Part shown: positions 15,248-24,042 of the stretch, piece after piece | Position numbering within the stretch: the stretch's first letter is position 1 | Layout: the number at the start of each line of letters is the position of its first letter | Origin: a virus | Length of the DNA stretch: 24,880 nt | IMG/VR virus record: IMGVR_UViG_3300047318_000398 | Coordinates: 1-24,880 of that record | Reading direction: 5' to 3' (one strand) | Notes under the pieces: model-generated | Databases searched by the model: none | What the model was told of the DNA's origin: nothing | Seen by the model: the letters and a program-made list of their open reading frames with translations, nothing else | Made by a program: the position numbers and the translations under genes

Positions 15248-15465
15248 GCGGCAACGCTGTGCTTGTCAAGGGCTTGGGCGATATCGGCGAGATCCCATAG
15301 GGCGGTGGCTTGGCCGCCGTTGGGGTTGGGTCGGGAGCCGGTGGGCTTGATGTGGTGGCGTACGGCCCAGCCGCGGAAGCTGCCGGGCTTCATGCCGAGG
15401 GAGTAGGCGGCGGCTGCGGTGTCGACGAGGGTGCGGCTGTCCCGGCCGGCGAGTGTGGTGGTCAC
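15244..15465 (-). CDS. Small helix-turn-helix DNA-binding protein
   Basis: A 73-residue protein from GTG 15465, whose GTGA overlaps the upstream TGA (15462-15464). It contains DTAAAAYSLGMKPGSFRGWA, a helix-turn-helix start as in excisionase/AlpA or phage MerR-like proteins, followed by VRHHIKPTGSRPNPNGGQAT and ALWDLADIAQALDKH. This layout (helix, recognition helix, beta-wing with GRxNPxG, then DLxxIxxAL) is common in small actinophage regulators. It could act on the nearby CATGA inverted repeat. Co-translated with the zinc-ribbon gene. Confidence 0.75.
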   Translation of the reverse strand: MTTTLAGRDSRTLVDTAAAAYSLGMKPGSFRGWAVRHHIKPTGSRPNPNGGQATALWDLADIAQALDKHSVAA

Positions 15466-16034
15466 GATGCGGCCGCCAGGTTGGTCGTCAGTAGGTACAT
15501 GCGGGTCCCGTCGTACCTCGCCGGACGCCCGTCCTCGTCCGCGCACTCGGGGTTCGTACACCAGGCGCGCGGCCGGTCATCGTCTGCCCGTCCGTATATG
15601 GTGCGGGCGCCGCAGATGAGGCACAGGGCGTGCCGGAAGTGCGTGGACGGCTGCCGCAACCCCAGCACGGTGAGACAGGTGCCGTGCCACTGCCCGACGG
15701 TGCGCATGGCCTCGGTGACGCGGTCGGTCTGCTCCGCTGTGGGCGGGATGGCGCGCATGGCCCGGTCCCAGCGCTGCGGGTGGCTGGAGGCGCGGAGTTC
15801 CATGTCGAGGATGACGGCCTCGGCTTTGATGCGGGTGGCCCAGTGGACGGCGTCGAGGCTGGCGGGTGGCCGGCTGCCGGGTGTGGAGTGTCCGCCGGTT
15901 TGCCGGGGTTGGGTGGTGCGTTGGGTGAGGTTGTCGAGGCGGGTGATGAGGCCGGGGCCGCCGTCGCCGGGGCGGTCGGTGTCGCCTCGGTAGGCGTCGA
16001 GTAGGTCGTGGATGAGGTCGTCAGGCGTCGCCAT
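15462..16034 (-). CDS. Zinc-ribbon protein of phage accessory region
   Basis: A 190-residue protein from ATG 16034 with GGAG 7 bases upstream. The N-terminal third is helical and acidic (MATPDDLIHDLLDAYRGDTD). A helical middle (DAVHWATRIKAEAVILDMEL, then RVTEAMRTVGQWHGTCLTVL) follows. The C-terminal part has a Cys4 cluster: CLIC ... CTNPEC with GRADDDRPRAW between, a zinc ribbon. Similar proteins occur next to phage HTH genes in actinophages, with no known function. It reads into the HTH gene through a 4-base overlap. Binding of nucleic acid or a partner through the zinc ribbon is the best guess. Confidence 0.8.
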   Translation of the reverse strand: MATPDDLIHDLLDAYRGDTDRPGDGGPGLITRLDNLTQRTTQPRQTGGHSTPGSRPPASLDAVHWATRIKAEAVILDMELRASSHPQRWDRAMRAIPPTAEQTDRVTEAMRTVGQWHGTCLTVLGLRQPSTHFRHALCLICGARTIYGRADDDRPRAWCTNPECADEDGRPARYDGTRMYLLTTNLAAAS

Positions 16035-18470: not shown

Positions 18471-19094
18471 CTAGTGGTGGTAGCCGGTGCCGTACAGCAG
18501 AACGCCGACGACGGTGGATGAGACGGGGACGGCGGCGGCCCATGCGACAGGCCACGTCCGGGACCGCGTGCGCTGGTAGAGGGCGACGGCACAGATCCCG
18601 AGCCCGTACAGCACCCATGACGACCGGGCCGTCCAGTGCCCGGCGGGAAACCAGGCCGCGGTGTTGGTAGCCCAGTGGACCCAGCCGAGCCGCCAGCCCG
18701 CTCCGGCCGCTGCGGCGTGGTAGGCAAGCCACTTCAGGCGGGGCGGGACGCGGCCCCAGGCGCCGAGGAGGGATTGGCGGGTGGCAGGCGGCCGGCTGTC
18801 GAAGGCGGTGCGCGGTGCGGCCGGGTCGTGGGGCGGGCGCTTCTTCCGCTTCTTGGGCTTGGCGGCCGGCGCCTTCGGTGCGGGCTCGGGCGCGGCCGGG
18901 GGCTTGGGTTCGGTGGCAGGTTCGTCCGGGGCCGGCGCGGGGGTGTTGCTGTCGAGGATGTCGTCGAGCCAGTCGCGGGGCGGCTTGGTGGGCTTCGGCG
19001 GGATCGGTCGCGGGGGCGTGGCGTCGGGGCCTACGCCGCGGGCGCGGAGGATGTGGCGGACGCGGAGCTCGTCCGCACCGGGGATGGTGGTCAC
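18471..19094 (-). CDS. Membrane protein with Lys/Pro-rich cytoplasmic region
   Basis: A 207-residue protein from GTG 19094, whose GTGA overlaps the stop of the SpdB-like gene. The N-terminal 90 residues are hydrophilic: DELRVRHILRARGVGPDATP, a Pro-rich linker, then AAKPKKRKKRPPHDPAA. The C-terminal half has hydrophobic segments (LKWLAYHAAAAGAGWRLGWV, WVLYGLGICAVALYQRTR, WAAAVPVSSTVVGVLLYG). It may link a membrane complex to DNA or a partner protein through the basic stretch. The family is not recognised. Position in the operon suggests a function in transfer. Confidence 0.75.
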   Translation of the reverse strand: MTTIPGADELRVRHILRARGVGPDATPPRPIPPKPTKPPRDWLDDILDSNTPAPAPDEPATEPKPPAAPEPAPKAPAAKPKKRKKRPPHDPAAPRTAFDSRPPATRQSLLGAWGRVPPRLKWLAYHAAAAGAGWRLGWVHWATNTAAWFPAGHWTARSSWVLYGLGICAVALYQRTRSRTWPVAWAAAVPVSSTVVGVLLYGTGYHH

Positions 19095-20209
19095 AGGTAC
19101 AGCCCCGTTCCATCGCTGACCCGGCCGCGCGCTTCCTTGAGTCGTCGGCCGGCGGTGGCCGGGCTCACGGCGAGGATTTCGGCGGCGGTGTTCTTGGTGA
19201 GCCGCTCGCCGCGCCTGAGCCGGGCGGCGAGTTCGGTGATCTGCTGCTCCTGCTCGCCGGCCTCCGGCTCACCGGCGGGCTCAGGATCCGGCTCAAGGGC
19301 GCTGAGGGTGGTGGGCTCAGCCGGGCTCAAGACCGGCTCACGTGAGATCACCTGGTCAGCGGGTGTGACGAGTGGCTGGACCGGGTCGGCGATGACGGCT
19401 TGCGGCTCAGTGCTGGTGACGGTGAGCGCGGTGGTGACCGTCGTCTCGAAGTCCGGCGGCTCAGGCTCACCGGGCTCGGGCTCAGGGCTCAACGACGGCT
19501 GAGCCGGGGTGAGCTCGGGGCGTACCGGGGTGCCGGTGAGCATCCCGGCAAGGGCCTCGTCCGCGCCCTCGGTGAGCCGGTCCCGCTGTACGGCGATGAG
19601 CCCGGCGCCGAGTTGGGTGTCGCCTTCTCCGATGCGGCTCATGAGCCGCCAGGCCTTCAGGGCGGACCGCTTCCGTACCCACGTCTTGGGGTGGCGTTCG
19701 GCGCGCGCCCGGTGGTAGGCGATCCGGCGCAGCAGCGTGGCATTGCGGCGCTGCGCCTCGATGTCCACTCCGGTGCGGTGCGCGACGATCCGGCGGGCGA
19801 GCAGGCCGAGGCCTTCCGCGCTGACGGTCATGGCCATGGGAGTAACGGCGAAGACGACGGCGTCTCGGAGGCCGGGCGCGACGATCGCGCCAGTGACGGA
19901 TGCGGTCGCGGGCAGCAGCCACAGGCCGGCGCGCACGGCCAGGGGGGCGGGCTGGCCGAGCATGGTGAGGCCGACGAGGACCAGGGCGAGGACGAGGGTT
20001 GCGCCTTCACCGGCGGCGACGACGCCGAGGGCGGTGGGGGCGCGGTGGAGGACGCTGGTGATGTTGGTGTAGGTGCCCCATGCGCCGAGTCCTCCGGCTG
20101 CGATCATGGGGAGGGTGGCGGCGGCGAGGATGGCTTGCTGGCCTCGGGTGAGAGTCGGTTCACCCCCGTCCTTCTGGTGGCTGGGGGCGCTGTGGCGGCG
20201 CGTGGGCAC
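19091..20209 (-). CDS. SpdB-like spread/transfer membrane protein
   Basis: A 372-residue protein from GTG 20209, with GGAAGG 6 bases upstream. It has four hydrophobic segments in the first 150 residues (AILAAATLPMIAAGGLGAWG, LVLALVLVGLTMLG, WLLPATASVTGAIVAPG, AVVFAVTPMAMTVSAEGLGL). A basic region (RRNATLLRRIAYHRARAERH) follows. A long Glu-Pro linker then leads to a C-terminal helix-turn-helix-like end, RLTKNTAAEILAVSPATAGR. Four N-terminal TM helices with a C-terminal DNA-binding region is the layout of SpdB/DUF2637 proteins of Streptomyces plasmids and AICEs. No TraB translocase is in the window. The annotation is inferred from layout. Confidence 0.65.
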   Translation of the reverse strand: MPTRRHSAPSHQKDGGEPTLTRGQQAILAAATLPMIAAGGLGAWGTYTNITSVLHRAPTALGVVAAGEGATLVLALVLVGLTMLGQPAPLAVRAGLWLLPATASVTGAIVAPGLRDAVVFAVTPMAMTVSAEGLGLLARRIVAHRTGVDIEAQRRNATLLRRIAYHRARAERHPKTWVRKRSALKAWRLMSRIGEGDTQLGAGLIAVQRDRLTEGADEALAGMLTGTPVRPELTPAQPSLSPEPEPGEPEPPDFETTVTTALTVTSTEPQAVIADPVQPLVTPADQVISREPVLSPAEPTTLSALEPDPEPAGEPEAGEQEQQITELAARLRRGERLTKNTAAEILAVSPATAGRRLKEARGRVSDGTGLYL

Positions 20210-20237
20210 GGTGGTCCTTCCGGGGTTTGGGTTGGGT

Positions 20238-20269
20238 GGCCGCACCCCGCCGGGTGGTGGGGTGCGGCC
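20238..20269 (-). terminator. 11-bp hairpin upstream of SpdB-like gene
   Basis: GGCCGCACCCC pairs with GGGGTGCGGCC around a 10-base loop, 30 bases before the GTG start at 20209. It may separate the upstream small genes from the membrane-protein genes. It may also act as an attenuator in the leader. Confidence 0.6.
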
Positions 20270-20577: not shown

Positions 20578-20967
20578 TCAGCGCTGTACGACAGGGCGGT
20601 TGATGTCGCGGTGAATGACGGTCACGGTGTGTCCGCGGCGGCGGAGGCGGCGGGCGAGCTGGTCGGCGACGACGACGGAGCGGTGCCGGCCGCCGGCGCA
20701 TCCGGAGCCGATGACGATTTCCTGGGCGGAGGGTCCGGCGGTATATGCCTGTGCCTGTCGGGCGGTGGCGCGCAGGAGACGGCGGATGCCGGTGGTGGCC
20801 AGGACGGCGCGGCGGACGGGGCTGTCGCGGCCGGTGAGTTCGCGCAGGCGGGGGTTGATGTGGGGGTCGCGGAACGCCCTGCGCAGGTCGAGGGTTATGT
20901 CGGCTTCGGGGGCGGGGCCGTGGAGGTAGCCGAAGGAGATGATCCTGATGCTGATTGGGGCGTTCAT
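20578..20967 (-). CDS. Stand-alone RapZ C-terminal domain protein
   Basis: A 129-residue protein from ATG 20967, whose ATGA overlaps the upstream stop. It matches the C-terminal half of RapZ: RIISFGYLHGPAPEADITLD, LDLRRAFRDPHINPRLRELT, SGCAGGRHRSVVVADQLARR with the GCxGGRHRSV motif (89-98), then VTVIHRDINR (HRDI 119-122). The N-terminal P-loop kinase half of RapZ is absent. In E. coli the RapZ C-domain binds the sRNA GlmZ and RNase E partners. In this setting the ligand is unknown; it might bind a nucleotide, sugar or RNA. It is carried in a mobile-element operon, not next to glmS. Confidence 0.9.
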   Translation of the reverse strand: MNAPISIRIISFGYLHGPAPEADITLDLRRAFRDPHINPRLRELTGRDSPVRRAVLATTGIRRLLRATARQAQAYTAGPSAQEIVIGSGCAGGRHRSVVVADQLARRLRRRGHTVTVIHRDINRPVVQR

Positions 20968-22433: not shown

Positions 22434-22473
22434 GGCCCCGGCCATATGGCGTTCGTAGCGCCGGGCCGGGGCC
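22434..22473. repeat. 10-bp inverted repeat in divergent region
   Basis: GGCCCCGGCC (22434-22443) and GGCCGGGGCC (22464-22473) pair, with GGCG/CGCC able to extend the stem inward. It lies in the leader of the minus operon, between its candidate promoter and first gene. On the plus strand CTCTTGTTG follows, so it could also stop plus-strand RNA coming from the left. Confidence 0.6.
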
Positions 22474-22491: not shown

Positions 22492-22528
22492 AGAGTTGCA
22501 GAGCCTCTTTACAAACGTCAAGAGGCTC
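22492..22528 (-). promoter_or_regulatory. Candidate promoter and operator of divergent operon
   Basis: The perfect inverted repeat GAGCCTCTT-N10-AAGAGGCTC (22501-22528) covers a minus-strand TTGACG (22516-22521), followed after 18 bases by AACTCT (22492-22497). It ends right at the GGGGAGG ribosome site of the plus-strand regulator gene. A protein bound here could control both directions. No good plus-strand promoter was found. Confidence 0.55.
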
Positions 22529-22543
22529 GGGGAGGATGTTGCC

Positions 22544-22942
22544 GTGCCCAAGAGCCCTGAACCAGAGGGGAGTCCGCGCTTGATGACCGTCACCGAGATC
22601 GCGGCGGAGCACGGGGTCAGCCGCCAGTCGATCCACACGTACCGACGGACCGGTGTCTTCCCTCCGCCTGTCGAGGGTGAGGGCAGCACGCGCCTGCGGT
22701 TCCGTTCGGACGAGGTGGCCGCGTTCTTCGAGGCGAACCCAAAGCAGCCAGGCAAGAAGCGGGGGACCACTCCTCGGGAGCAGCAAGGAGGCCGATCAAT
22801 GACGGTGTATGTGGTGACGATGCGGGTTGAGGCGGAAGCCGAAGTCGATGCGACACAGATTCGAGAGGAGGTCTATGACGCCTGTCGTGACGTGTCGTTC
22901 GGCTTCGACATCACCAGCGTGACCGAGGGGGATGGTTCGTGA
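22544..22942 (+). CDS. Helix-turn-helix regulator, divergent from transfer-like operon
   Basis: A 132-residue protein from GTG 22544, chosen because GGGGAGG lies 8 bases upstream; the ATG at 22487 is upstream of the palindrome. DNA-binding segment: MTVTEIAAEHGVSRQSIHTY, a helix-turn-helix with recognition helix SRQSIHTYRR, then GEGSTRLRFRSDEVAAFFEA, a MerR/AlpA-type wing region. The last 47 residues (MTVYVVTMRVEAEAEVDATQ...) form a separate small alpha/beta domain and can also be made alone from the internal ATG at 22799. It probably represses the minus operon through the palindrome at 22501-22528. Confidence 0.82.
   Translation: MPKSPEPEGSPRLMTVTEIAAEHGVSRQSIHTYRRTGVFPPPVEGEGSTRLRFRSDEVAAFFEANPKQPGKKRGTTPREQQGGRSMTVYVVTMRVEAEAEVDATQIREEVYDACRDVSFGFDITSVTEGDGS
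22799..22942 (+). CDS. Internal in-frame start: 47-residue C-terminal domain made alone
   Basis: AAGGAGG (22785-22791) stands 7 bases before ATG 22799, in the same frame as the regulator. The resulting 47-residue product contains the whole C-terminal domain (MTVYVVTMRVEAEAEV, EEVYDACRDVSFGFDITSVT). Alternatively two genes were fused by loss of a stop codon. A shorter form could act as an inhibitor or partner of the full-length regulator. Confidence 0.55.
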   Translation: MTVYVVTMRVEAEAEVDATQIREEVYDACRDVSFGFDITSVTEGDGS

Positions 22943-23117
22943 GCGAGGACCTGGTGGCGTTCCTGCGGGAGCGCTTCAACTCGCCGAACGCGCCTACGAC
23001 TACCACGAGACCTTCACGAACGGCTCCGCCGCCGCCTTGGAAGGTGCACTCCGCCTGTTCGCGCAGGCCTACGCCGACCACCCCGACTACCGGCCGGAGT
23101 GGGCACCCGACGCCTGA
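22939..23117 (+). pseudogene. Frameshifted DUF6221-like gene remnant
   Basis: GTG 22939 overlaps the regulator stop by 4 bases and begins VSEDLVAFLRERF, the typical start of DUF6221 proteins of Streptomyces. The frame then becomes low-quality, while another frame continues as LQLAERAYDYHETFTNGSAA and ends RLFAQAYADHPDYRPEWAPD, the typical DUF6221 end. Restoring one base after CGGGAGCGC joins them into a protein of about 60 residues, shorter than usual for the family. The central part is also missing. ATG 22932 would read into the second frame but gives an unlikely N-terminus. The shift is real or a sequencing error. Function of the family is unknown. Confidence 0.65.
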
Positions 23118-23134
23118 CCGCCCCCGCACGCGAC

Positions 23135-23165
23135 GACGGCCCCGCCTGGGCAAGGCGGGGCCGTC
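23135..23165. terminator. 12-bp terminator between convergent units
   Basis: GACGGCCCCGCC pairs perfectly with GGCGGGGCCGTC around TGGGCAA. It stands between the end of the plus-strand unit (23117) and the end of the minus-strand kinase gene (23183), so it serves both. Confidence 0.85.
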
Positions 23166-23182: not shown

Positions 23183-23962
23183 CTACCGGCGCACTGCCGC
23201 CCGAACCTCCCCAGTCAGCGCCCGGTGCCGCGCATTGCTGTGCCGCGCCCCATGCTCACCCACAGCAGCAGCGAGCGCCCGGCACCGCACCTCACACCAC
23301 ACGGCCACGGCGTCAGGGTCAGCCGCGTCCCAGGCCGGAACCGTGCCCGCCCAGTCGCAGGCGTCCCGCGCGGTGTGCCCGTCCTCCATCAGCCGGACCG
23401 CAGCCTCGGCCGTGTCCGCCCACCCGGGGCCCCTGGAGGGCATGGCCCAGTCCACCAGCCACGCCCGGCTGTTGACGAGCAGGTTGTGGGGGTTGATGTC
23501 GCCGTGCACCAGCTGGCTGCCGCTGAGCAGCGCGCGCTCGTCCGGGGTGGTCACGTCCGCCCACTGGTCAGCCCACGCGGATAGCCTGCCGGGCGCGGCC
23601 AACATGCTGCTGCGGGCCAGGACTTCGGCGACGGCCAGCAGGTCGGGCGAGCCGGGGCCGAGGTCGGCGTGCCGGCCGGGGACCGCGTCGAAGGCGATCA
23701 GGTCCCAGCCGTCGGCCTCCGTGCGCCAACGGACCTGCGGGCCGACGCCGGCGGTGTGCGGGGCGACGGCGACCTCTCGGCCGTGGTCGTCGGAGTGGGC
23801 GCTGTTGCCCTTGACGAACACCTTGAGGACGGACGTGGTGAGCACGGCGGCGGTCTGGCAGTTGTAGCCGTACGGGACGTCGCGGGCCGCTGTGACGGGC
23901 CCGGTGTGGGCGGTGACGGCGGCACGGACGGCGGCGGGCAGGTCGGCCCAGAGCGTGCGCAT
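23183..23962 (-). CDS. Aminoglycoside phosphotransferase-family kinase
   Basis: A 259-residue protein from ATG 23962, sharing one base with the stop of the 26-residue gene upstream; the longer frame start lies inside that gene. It has the protein-kinase-like APH fold: possible ATP lysine in SVLKVFVKGN (Lys47/51), Glu63 in HGREVAVA, the catalytic loop LVHGDINPHNLLVN with Asp155 and Asn160, and metal-binding Asp171 in WLVDWAMPSRGPGW. All key residues are present, so it may be active. Substrate cannot be predicted; APH-family proteins phosphorylate antibiotics or small metabolites. It is a separate transcription unit, likely cargo. Confidence 0.88.
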   Translation of the reverse strand: MRTLWADLPAAVRAAVTAHTGPVTAARDVPYGYNCQTAAVLTTSVLKVFVKGNSAHSDDHGREVAVAPHTAGVGPQVRWRTEADGWDLIAFDAVPGRHADLGPGSPDLLAVAEVLARSSMLAAPGRLSAWADQWADVTTPDERALLSGSQLVHGDINPHNLLVNSRAWLVDWAMPSRGPGWADTAEAAVRLMEDGHTARDACDWAGTVPAWDAADPDAVAVWCEVRCRALAAAVGEHGARHSNARHRALTGEVRAAVRR

Positions 23963-24042
23963 CAGCCCTGGGTGGCTCCGCACTTGCGGCAGCGCTGTTT
24001 GCCGCTCCACTGCGTCCATTCATGATCGCAATTGGCGAGCAT
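23962..24042 (-). CDS. 26-residue zinc-ribbon-like microprotein coupled to kinase
   Basis: From ATG 24042 with GGGAGG 5 bases upstream, an ideal ribosome site, to TGA overlapping the ATG of the kinase gene. It has a CxH pair (NCDH) and CRKC near the end with WTQWSGKQ between, which could bind one zinc ion. Similar small C/H peptides are common in Streptomyces mobile elements. Its translation probably drives the kinase gene, which has no ribosome site of its own. A weak -10 (TACGCT, 24074-24079) lies upstream. Confidence 0.7.
   Translation of the reverse strand: MLANCDHEWTQWSGKQRCRKCGATQG

What the first reader, a model, noticed from the sequence alone, without database searches (positions are those of the whole stretch)
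22492..22942. Divergent switch: perfect 9-bp palindrome beside an HTH regulator with internal start
Seen: GAGCCTCTT-N10-AAGAGGCTC ends at the regulator's ribosome site and covers a minus-strand TTGACG. Inference: autorepression and repression of the transfer-like operon by the same protein, a copy-control or transfer-control switch as in Streptomyces plasmid kor systems. The 28-bp site with 10-base spacer fits dimer binding on one face of the helix.
Basis: partly seen in the sequence, partly recalled or inferred. Interest (0 to 1): 0.65.

Follow-up and report, generated by a model that had tools for sequence, protein, structure and literature searches.

The report
Phage switch with swappable fused cargo
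A small DNA-binding protein of a Streptomyces phage most likely controls two back-to-back promoters through a palindrome that relatives keep in step with the protein, and in its close relatives the regulator is joined in frame, through a conserved internal translation start, to one of many unrelated small proteins.

Summary
The palindrome is real (22501-22528) and belongs to a conserved 27-28 bp dyad upstream of this HTH gene family: 77 distinct loci carry it; of those found by protein search alone, 29 of 31 and 19 of 19 have it. Best explanation: the HTH protein's own operator. Its core is TT-type with recognition-helix Gln and GG-type with Ser or Thr, though over only two independent transitions. 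The dyad centre is also the -35 of the divergent promoter, with TANNNT or CANTNT 17-18 bp further on, so autorepression plus repression of the divergent genes is likely. Binding is untested and the window's own promoter boxes are weak. The plasmid copy/transfer reading is not supported: the window is a phage. Unexpected: in 35 of 35 complete close relatives the HTH frame runs on, through a conserved internal Shine-Dalgarno and start, into one of 11 unrelated tails, always in frame; distant relatives are stand-alone. The divergent first gene is equally variable, and the ~390-bp core is shared by phages in which the window's terminase was not found. New variant of a known kind.

The parts
22501..22528 (.). 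Operator dyad GAGCCTCTTTACA-AA-CGTCAAGAGGCTC (11 of 13 pairs)
   Evidence: conserved in 77 distinct loci
22516..22521 (-). -35-like TTGACG of the divergent promoter, at the dyad centre
   Evidence: Same place in 77 of 77 loci as TTGACG/TTGACA/TGGACA (part of the hexamer was fixed by the search pattern)
22492..22497 (-). -10-like AACTCT of the divergent promoter, spacer 18
   Evidence: Conserved position; weak here (no promoter-like hit)
22529..22536 (+). SD GGGGAGGA of the HTH gene, abutting the operator
22544..22942 (+). 132-aa ORF: winged-HTH head, low-confidence linker and tail
   Evidence: phrog_66, HTH_17
22622..22651 (+). Recognition helix, residues 27-36; Gln28 (22625-22627) is the residue that varies with the operator core
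   Evidence: AlphaFold2 model
22785..22790 (+). Internal SD AAGGAG, inside the HTH reading frame
   Evidence: AAGGAG 6 of 6 in 34 of 35 relatives; codon bias
22799..22942 (+). Tail (47 aa): C-terminal part of the fusion and probable separate product from ATG 22799
   Evidence: free-standing homologue in L136
21963..22394 (-). First divergent gene, 143 aa, CxxC motifs, short N-terminal motif typical of this slot
22434..22473 (-). GC-rich hairpin (10-bp stem) in the leader of the divergent transcript
   Evidence: Stem of 8 bp or more in 64 of 76 loci
23135..23165 (+). GC-rich hairpin after the HTH-tail unit, possible terminator without a T run
   Evidence: not scored as a terminator

Best explanation
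The 22501-22528 palindrome is the operator of the winged-HTH protein encoded next to it. A dimer binds the two inverted half-sites, covers the -35 box of the divergent promoter and the start region of its own gene, and so most likely represses both (an autoregulated divergent switch of a Streptomyces phage). The gene makes two products: a fusion of the HTH head with a tail, and the tail alone from the internal SD and ATG. Tail and first divergent gene are swappable slots on either side of a conserved ~390-bp regulatory core. Shown by sequence: dyad conservation, residue-core association, promoter-box position, in-frame fusion, codon-level conservation of the internal SD, tail diversity. Inferred: binding, dimerisation, sign (repression), two products in the cell.
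For: Dyad upstream of 29 of 31 distinct protein-found loci and 19 of 19 loci of a further clade. Core type against recognition-helix residue: TT-type with Gln 47, GG-type with Ser 8, GG-type with Thr 1, mixed core with Gln 1, of 57 rows; the further clade found by protein is 19 of 19 GG-type with Thr (includes the one Thr row). The residue lies at the start of the modelled recognition helix. On the minus strand TANNNT lies at spacer 17 (26 loci) or 18 (13) from the dyad-centre -35 and at no other spacer from 10 to 25, of 77 loci. Core identity 0.7-0.9 in most bins, falling to ~0.3 on both sides, 29 rows. 35 of 35 fusions in frame at six different offsets, all multiples of 3; 11 tail families. 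Gly codons over the SD are GGA 34 of 35 against 26 of 366 elsewhere; Gln CAA 25 of 25 against 24 of 242. Four tail families occur behind both operator types.
Against: No binding data. The residue-core association rests on two independent transitions (sign test p 0.5), and L016 has Gln with a mixed core. The dyad detector required ACA..[CT]GTC and at least 8 of 13 pairs, so part of the -35 hexamer is fixed by construction; the independent sign is the -10 spacing. The window's own promoter boxes (TTGACG, AACTCT) are weak and no promoter-like site was scored. No + strand promoter is clear. 30 of the 61 distinct rows were found only through a site pattern. Internal starts may lie in frame simply because tails recombine inside an ancestral fusion.
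Confidence: 0.74

Rival explanations
1. The palindrome acts as an RNA hairpin in the 5' leader of the HTH mRNA (control of translation or stability), and its arms covary for pairing.
For: Arms covary. In the window's own clade all six single-sided changes at pairs 1-9 (27 loci) are G-U wobbles in the + sense. It sits directly before the SD.
Against: Other clades break the pairing: C-C and G-A or G-G mismatches in clades m and k, A-G, G-G and T-T in clade g, and 11 A-C in clade t. The core follows a residue of the recognition helix. The -10 of the other strand keeps its distance to the dyad centre.
Confidence: 0.1
2. The dyad is the site of another factor, host or phage, and the HTH protein acts elsewhere (for instance as an excisionase).
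For: phrog_66 is named excisionase and transcriptional regulator. One clear site per phage.
Against: In VWB the HTH gene (gp21, 15321-15599) is ~15 kb from int and attP. The site goes with this gene across six clades and its core changes with the gene's recognition helix.
Confidence: 0.1
3. Plasmid-type copy or transfer control (kor-like).
For: Divergent regulator and operon with membrane proteins; some relatives lie on records filed as plasmids.
Against: Phage structural genes in the window; the 6 plasmid records with a match are all typed non-mobilizable; no transfer gene identified; HTH_17/MerR-like protein.
Confidence: 0.03
4. The in-frame fusion is only translational read-through of a regulator that lost its stop, without a function of the fused protein (this can hold together with the operator reading).
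For: The conserved core extends past the internal start, so new tails can be joined in frame passively; 12 of the 35 tails listed begin VTTT.
Against: Offsets 243, 246, 249, 252, 255 and 264 are all in frame and 11 tail families follow. Distant relatives have a normal stop at 81-93 aa (22 rows).
Confidence: 0.3

Closest known systems
AcrIIA15 and other HTH-anti-CRISPR fusions (PMC10901769: abstract and section 15 read; PMC8934645: passages read)
   Same: N-terminal HTH that represses its own promoter at an inverted repeat, fused to a second domain
   Different: Here the HTH is HTH_17/MerR-like; 11 unrelated tails follow one conserved head through a conserved internal start; the operator also covers a divergent promoter; no anti-CRISPR activity is known
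BldC (PMC5859096, passages read) and RdfS (PMC11963761, passages read)
   Same: Among the closest solved folds for the head; small winged-HTH; RdfS also represses its own promoter
   Different: BldC binds head-to-tail on direct repeats; the site here is an inverted repeat of up to 14 of 14 pairs
VWB gp21 (hypothetical protein of Streptomyces phage VWB)
   Same: Homologous stand-alone head with the same dyad and a stronger divergent promoter TTGACA-N18-TACGTT
   Different: No tail: 82 aa with its own stop
KorSA/KorA-type control of Streptomyces plasmids (recalled, no call)
   Same: Autoregulated operator beside a divergent operon
   Different: Phage context, different HTH family, no transfer genes identified

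Membership tests
BldC-like winged-HTH regulators | Small MerR-like winged-HTH fold without coiled coil | tested here: inconclusive
   Foldseek ranks BldC chains 2-4 at E 0.02; VIA Z 6.1 for 6ama_P, tied with many MerR proteins
BldC-like winged-HTH regulators | Binding site made of direct repeats | tested here: not met
   Site is an inverted repeat; direct repeats for BldC from passages of PMC5859096
Excisionase (Xis/RDF) | Sequence family phrog_66 | tested here: met
   35 of 35 fused members match
Excisionase (Xis/RDF) | Gene next to int/attP | tested here: not met
   VWB gp21 ~15 kb from int and attP; in the window itself no integrase was specifically sought
HTH-anti-CRISPR (Aca-Acr) fusion | HTH joined to a second domain | tested here: met
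   35 of 35, 11 tail families
HTH-anti-CRISPR (Aca-Acr) fusion | Autorepression at an inverted repeat | not testable with these tools
   Inverted repeat present; repression is inferred
HTH-anti-CRISPR (Aca-Acr) fusion | Tail inhibits CRISPR-Cas | not testable with these tools
   No library of anti-CRISPRs searched; the widespread PADLOC matches concern the HTH head
Classical MerR regulator | Operator between -35 and -10 with a 19-20 bp spacer (definition recalled) | tested here: not met
   Dyad centred on the -35, spacer 17-18
Kor plasmid control | GntR-type HTH regulator (recalled for KorSA) | tested here: not met
   Pfam HTH_17 and MerR_1, no GntR match
Kor plasmid control | Control of plasmid transfer genes | tested here: inconclusive
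   Phage genes in the window and no transfer gene among the proteins scanned, but no specific search for one

The most novel reading that the evidence does not exclude
The core is a bidirectional cargo platform of Streptomyces phages. Each tail is made twice, free as effector and fused to the HTH head as a sensor bound at the operator, so that the tail's host target (for instance a defence protein) changes repression and tunes the dose of the cargo on both sides. Tails are exchanged between heads of different operator specificity.
Probability: 0.2. Interest if true: 0.85.

Novelty: new variant of a known kind. Interest (0 to 1): 0.6.

Why it matters
Operators grouped by core, with a matching residue in the recognition helix, give a small and testable protein-DNA recognition code. 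The fixed internal start in front of many unrelated tails marks a slot where phages swap small proteins, so the head and dyad can serve as a bait for finding accessory and possibly anti-defence genes in Streptomyces phages and prophages. It would also suggest that an HTH-cargo fusion, which I know from anti-CRISPR proteins, can be a general platform.

Tried and rejected
RNA hairpin: six of six wobbles in the window's own clade looked convincing, but other clades break the pairing. Plasmid transfer control: no support. Excisionase position: not met in VWB. Further dyad copies in the same phages: CTTTACANYGTCAAG with up to 2 mismatches gave extra hits in 5 of 24 records (G397, G402, G407, G412, G413), each with 2 mismatches and not examined further; 2 of 24 records had no hit at all because their core differs. 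A host-genome pattern search of 391 genomes found 0, but my pattern had the outgroup spacing (N12), so it says nothing about the window's own clade, whose spacing is N11. A + strand promoter with TACAAT as -10 was considered; it is not kept in GG-core clades, so it stays open. The residue after FP in the wing seemed to follow the outer arm type in the window's clade, but clades m and k do not follow it (by eye). Function of the tails: Pfam gave only DUF6221, for 5 of 35; NCBIfam and PADLOC matches concern the head or are weak; the window tail and the L054 tail have no match in phages. VIA-align: Z under 8 throughout, so the fold match is only that of a common winged-HTH. Literature: nine of ten searches used; no paper on this operator, on VWB gp21 or on DUF6221 was seen in the listings; most subscription papers are not in that library.

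Full report
Observation. As a bare 9-bp inverted repeat it is not unusual in this GC-rich window: 8 distinct structures, 24 nested hits, shuffle mean 3.6. What makes it more than chance is conservation.

Where it lies. The window is a virus record of 24880 bases with TerL, portal, HK97 major capsid and tail genes. Named relatives are in Streptomyces phage VWB and other Streptomyces records. With a profile of the head, 10 of 392 Streptomyces genomes have a match at E 1e-10 or better.

Conservation of the dyad. Among 61 distinct HTH loci, 59 carry the dyad; with 18 more from a clade found by protein search this is 77. Part of the set was found through the site itself; of the 31 distinct loci found by protein, 29 have it. 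The two without are a remnant and a distant Mycobacterium phage gene. L046/L047 at 36-41% identity also lack it. The full element is 27-28 bp: GAACCTCTTTACA-n-YGTCAAGAGGTTC in part of the window's clade and in VWB, GAACTTCTGGACA-T-TGTCCAGAAGTTC in a sister clade, GAGAAGTGTGGACA-W-TGTCCACACTTCTC in a third, the last with up to 14 of 14 pairs.

Who binds it. Core type follows one residue of the HTH. In 57 rows: TT-type with Gln 47, GG-type with Ser 8, GG-type with Thr 1, mixed with Gln 1. The third clade is 19 of 19 GG-type with Thr. In the model of the window protein the residue (Gln28) lies at the start of helix 27-36, the recognition helix (mean pLDDT 77.5, pTM 0.42). The tree shows two independent transitions, both concordant; two pairs cannot reach significance (sign test p 0.5). 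The association is thus strong in number and modest in independent events.

What it covers. On the minus strand the dyad centre reads TTGACG (27), TTGACA (21) or TGGACA (29), 77 loci in all; part of this hexamer was fixed by the detector, so the independent test is the -10. TANNNT follows at spacer 17 in 26 and 18 in 13, and at no other spacer from 10 to 25; the 27 loci of the window's clade and the 10 of its sister clade have mostly CANTNT there instead. A protein on the dyad would cover this -35, hence the inference of repression. The window's own boxes are weak. No clear promoter of the HTH gene was found.

RNA rival. In the window's clade all six single-sided changes at pairs 1-9 are G-U wobbles in the + sense. 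In the other clades pairing is broken by A-G, G-G, T-T, C-C, G-A and A-C. An RNA stem is therefore not the conserved property.

The fusion. In the window's clade and its sister, 35 of 35 complete distinct ORFs run in frame from the head through an internal SD (AAGGAG 6 of 6 in 34 of 35) and start into a tail. Start offsets are 243, 246, 249, 252, 255 and 264, all multiples of 3. Tails fall into 11 unrelated families by single-link blastp at E 1e-3; one is DUF6221, 5 of 35. Codons over the SD are the rare ones: GGA in 34 of 35 Gly against 26 of 366 elsewhere, CAA in 25 of 25 Gln against 24 of 242, which speaks for selection on the SD itself. Four families occur behind both operator types. Tail homologues also exist free: DUF6221-like copies away from a head in several of the same loci and in phage Kromp, and a 43%-identical homologue of the window tail in L136. 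The 22 outgroup rows counted are stand-alone, 81-93 aa.

The other side. The first divergent gene starts mostly 90-114 nt from the dyad, has a short similar N-terminus, and then one of 25 unrelated bodies among 61 (a gene was chosen for 69 of 77 loci by an SD rule, so some calls may be wrong). DUF2637 proteins were found in 17 of 39 records and relatives of the window's 19091-20245 protein in 7 of 39, itself included.

A shared core in unrelated phages. The window's TerL was found in 0 of 24 records and its capsid, distantly, in 2 of 24 (many records are fragments). Identity across 29 close relatives is 0.7-0.9 in most bins from ~22424 to ~22810 and ~0.3 outside.

Comparison. The nearest functional precedent is AcrIIA15, an HTH-effector fusion that represses its own promoter, and Aca-Acr fusions in Streptococcus elements. 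The nearest folds are RdfS, BldC, Xis and MerR proteins, at scores that do not separate them. BldC uses direct repeats, unlike this site.

Verdict. The operator reading is well supported by comparison and untested by experiment; the plasmid reading is not supported; the modular in-frame fusion at a conserved internal start is the new and more interesting part.

Noticed in passing
window 22434-22473 and the same place in relatives: GC-rich hairpin in the leader of the divergent transcript, stem of 8 bp or more in 64 of 76 loci, with changing stem sequence.
   Followed up: partly
window 22939-23119: ORF that starts in a GTGA overlap with the tail's stop; by eye it resembles the two ends of a DUF6221 protein in two different frames. 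Not searched.
   Followed up: no
window 20578-20967 (-): RapZ C-terminal domain protein (Pfam E 4.5e-30; phrog_18111) in a phage operon.
   Followed up: no
window 23183-24019 (-): APH-like phosphotransferase domain (Pfam E 2.9e-5), converging on the HTH-tail unit.
   Followed up: no
window 19091-20245 (-): Protein with hydrophobic stretches and an HTH-like C-terminal end in about the position that DUF2637 proteins hold in relatives; it does not itself match DUF2637.
   Followed up: partly
L017 4001-4276 (Mycobacterium phage prophi91-4): A distant head relative is annotated as antitoxin beside a toxin gene, without the dyad.
   Followed up: no
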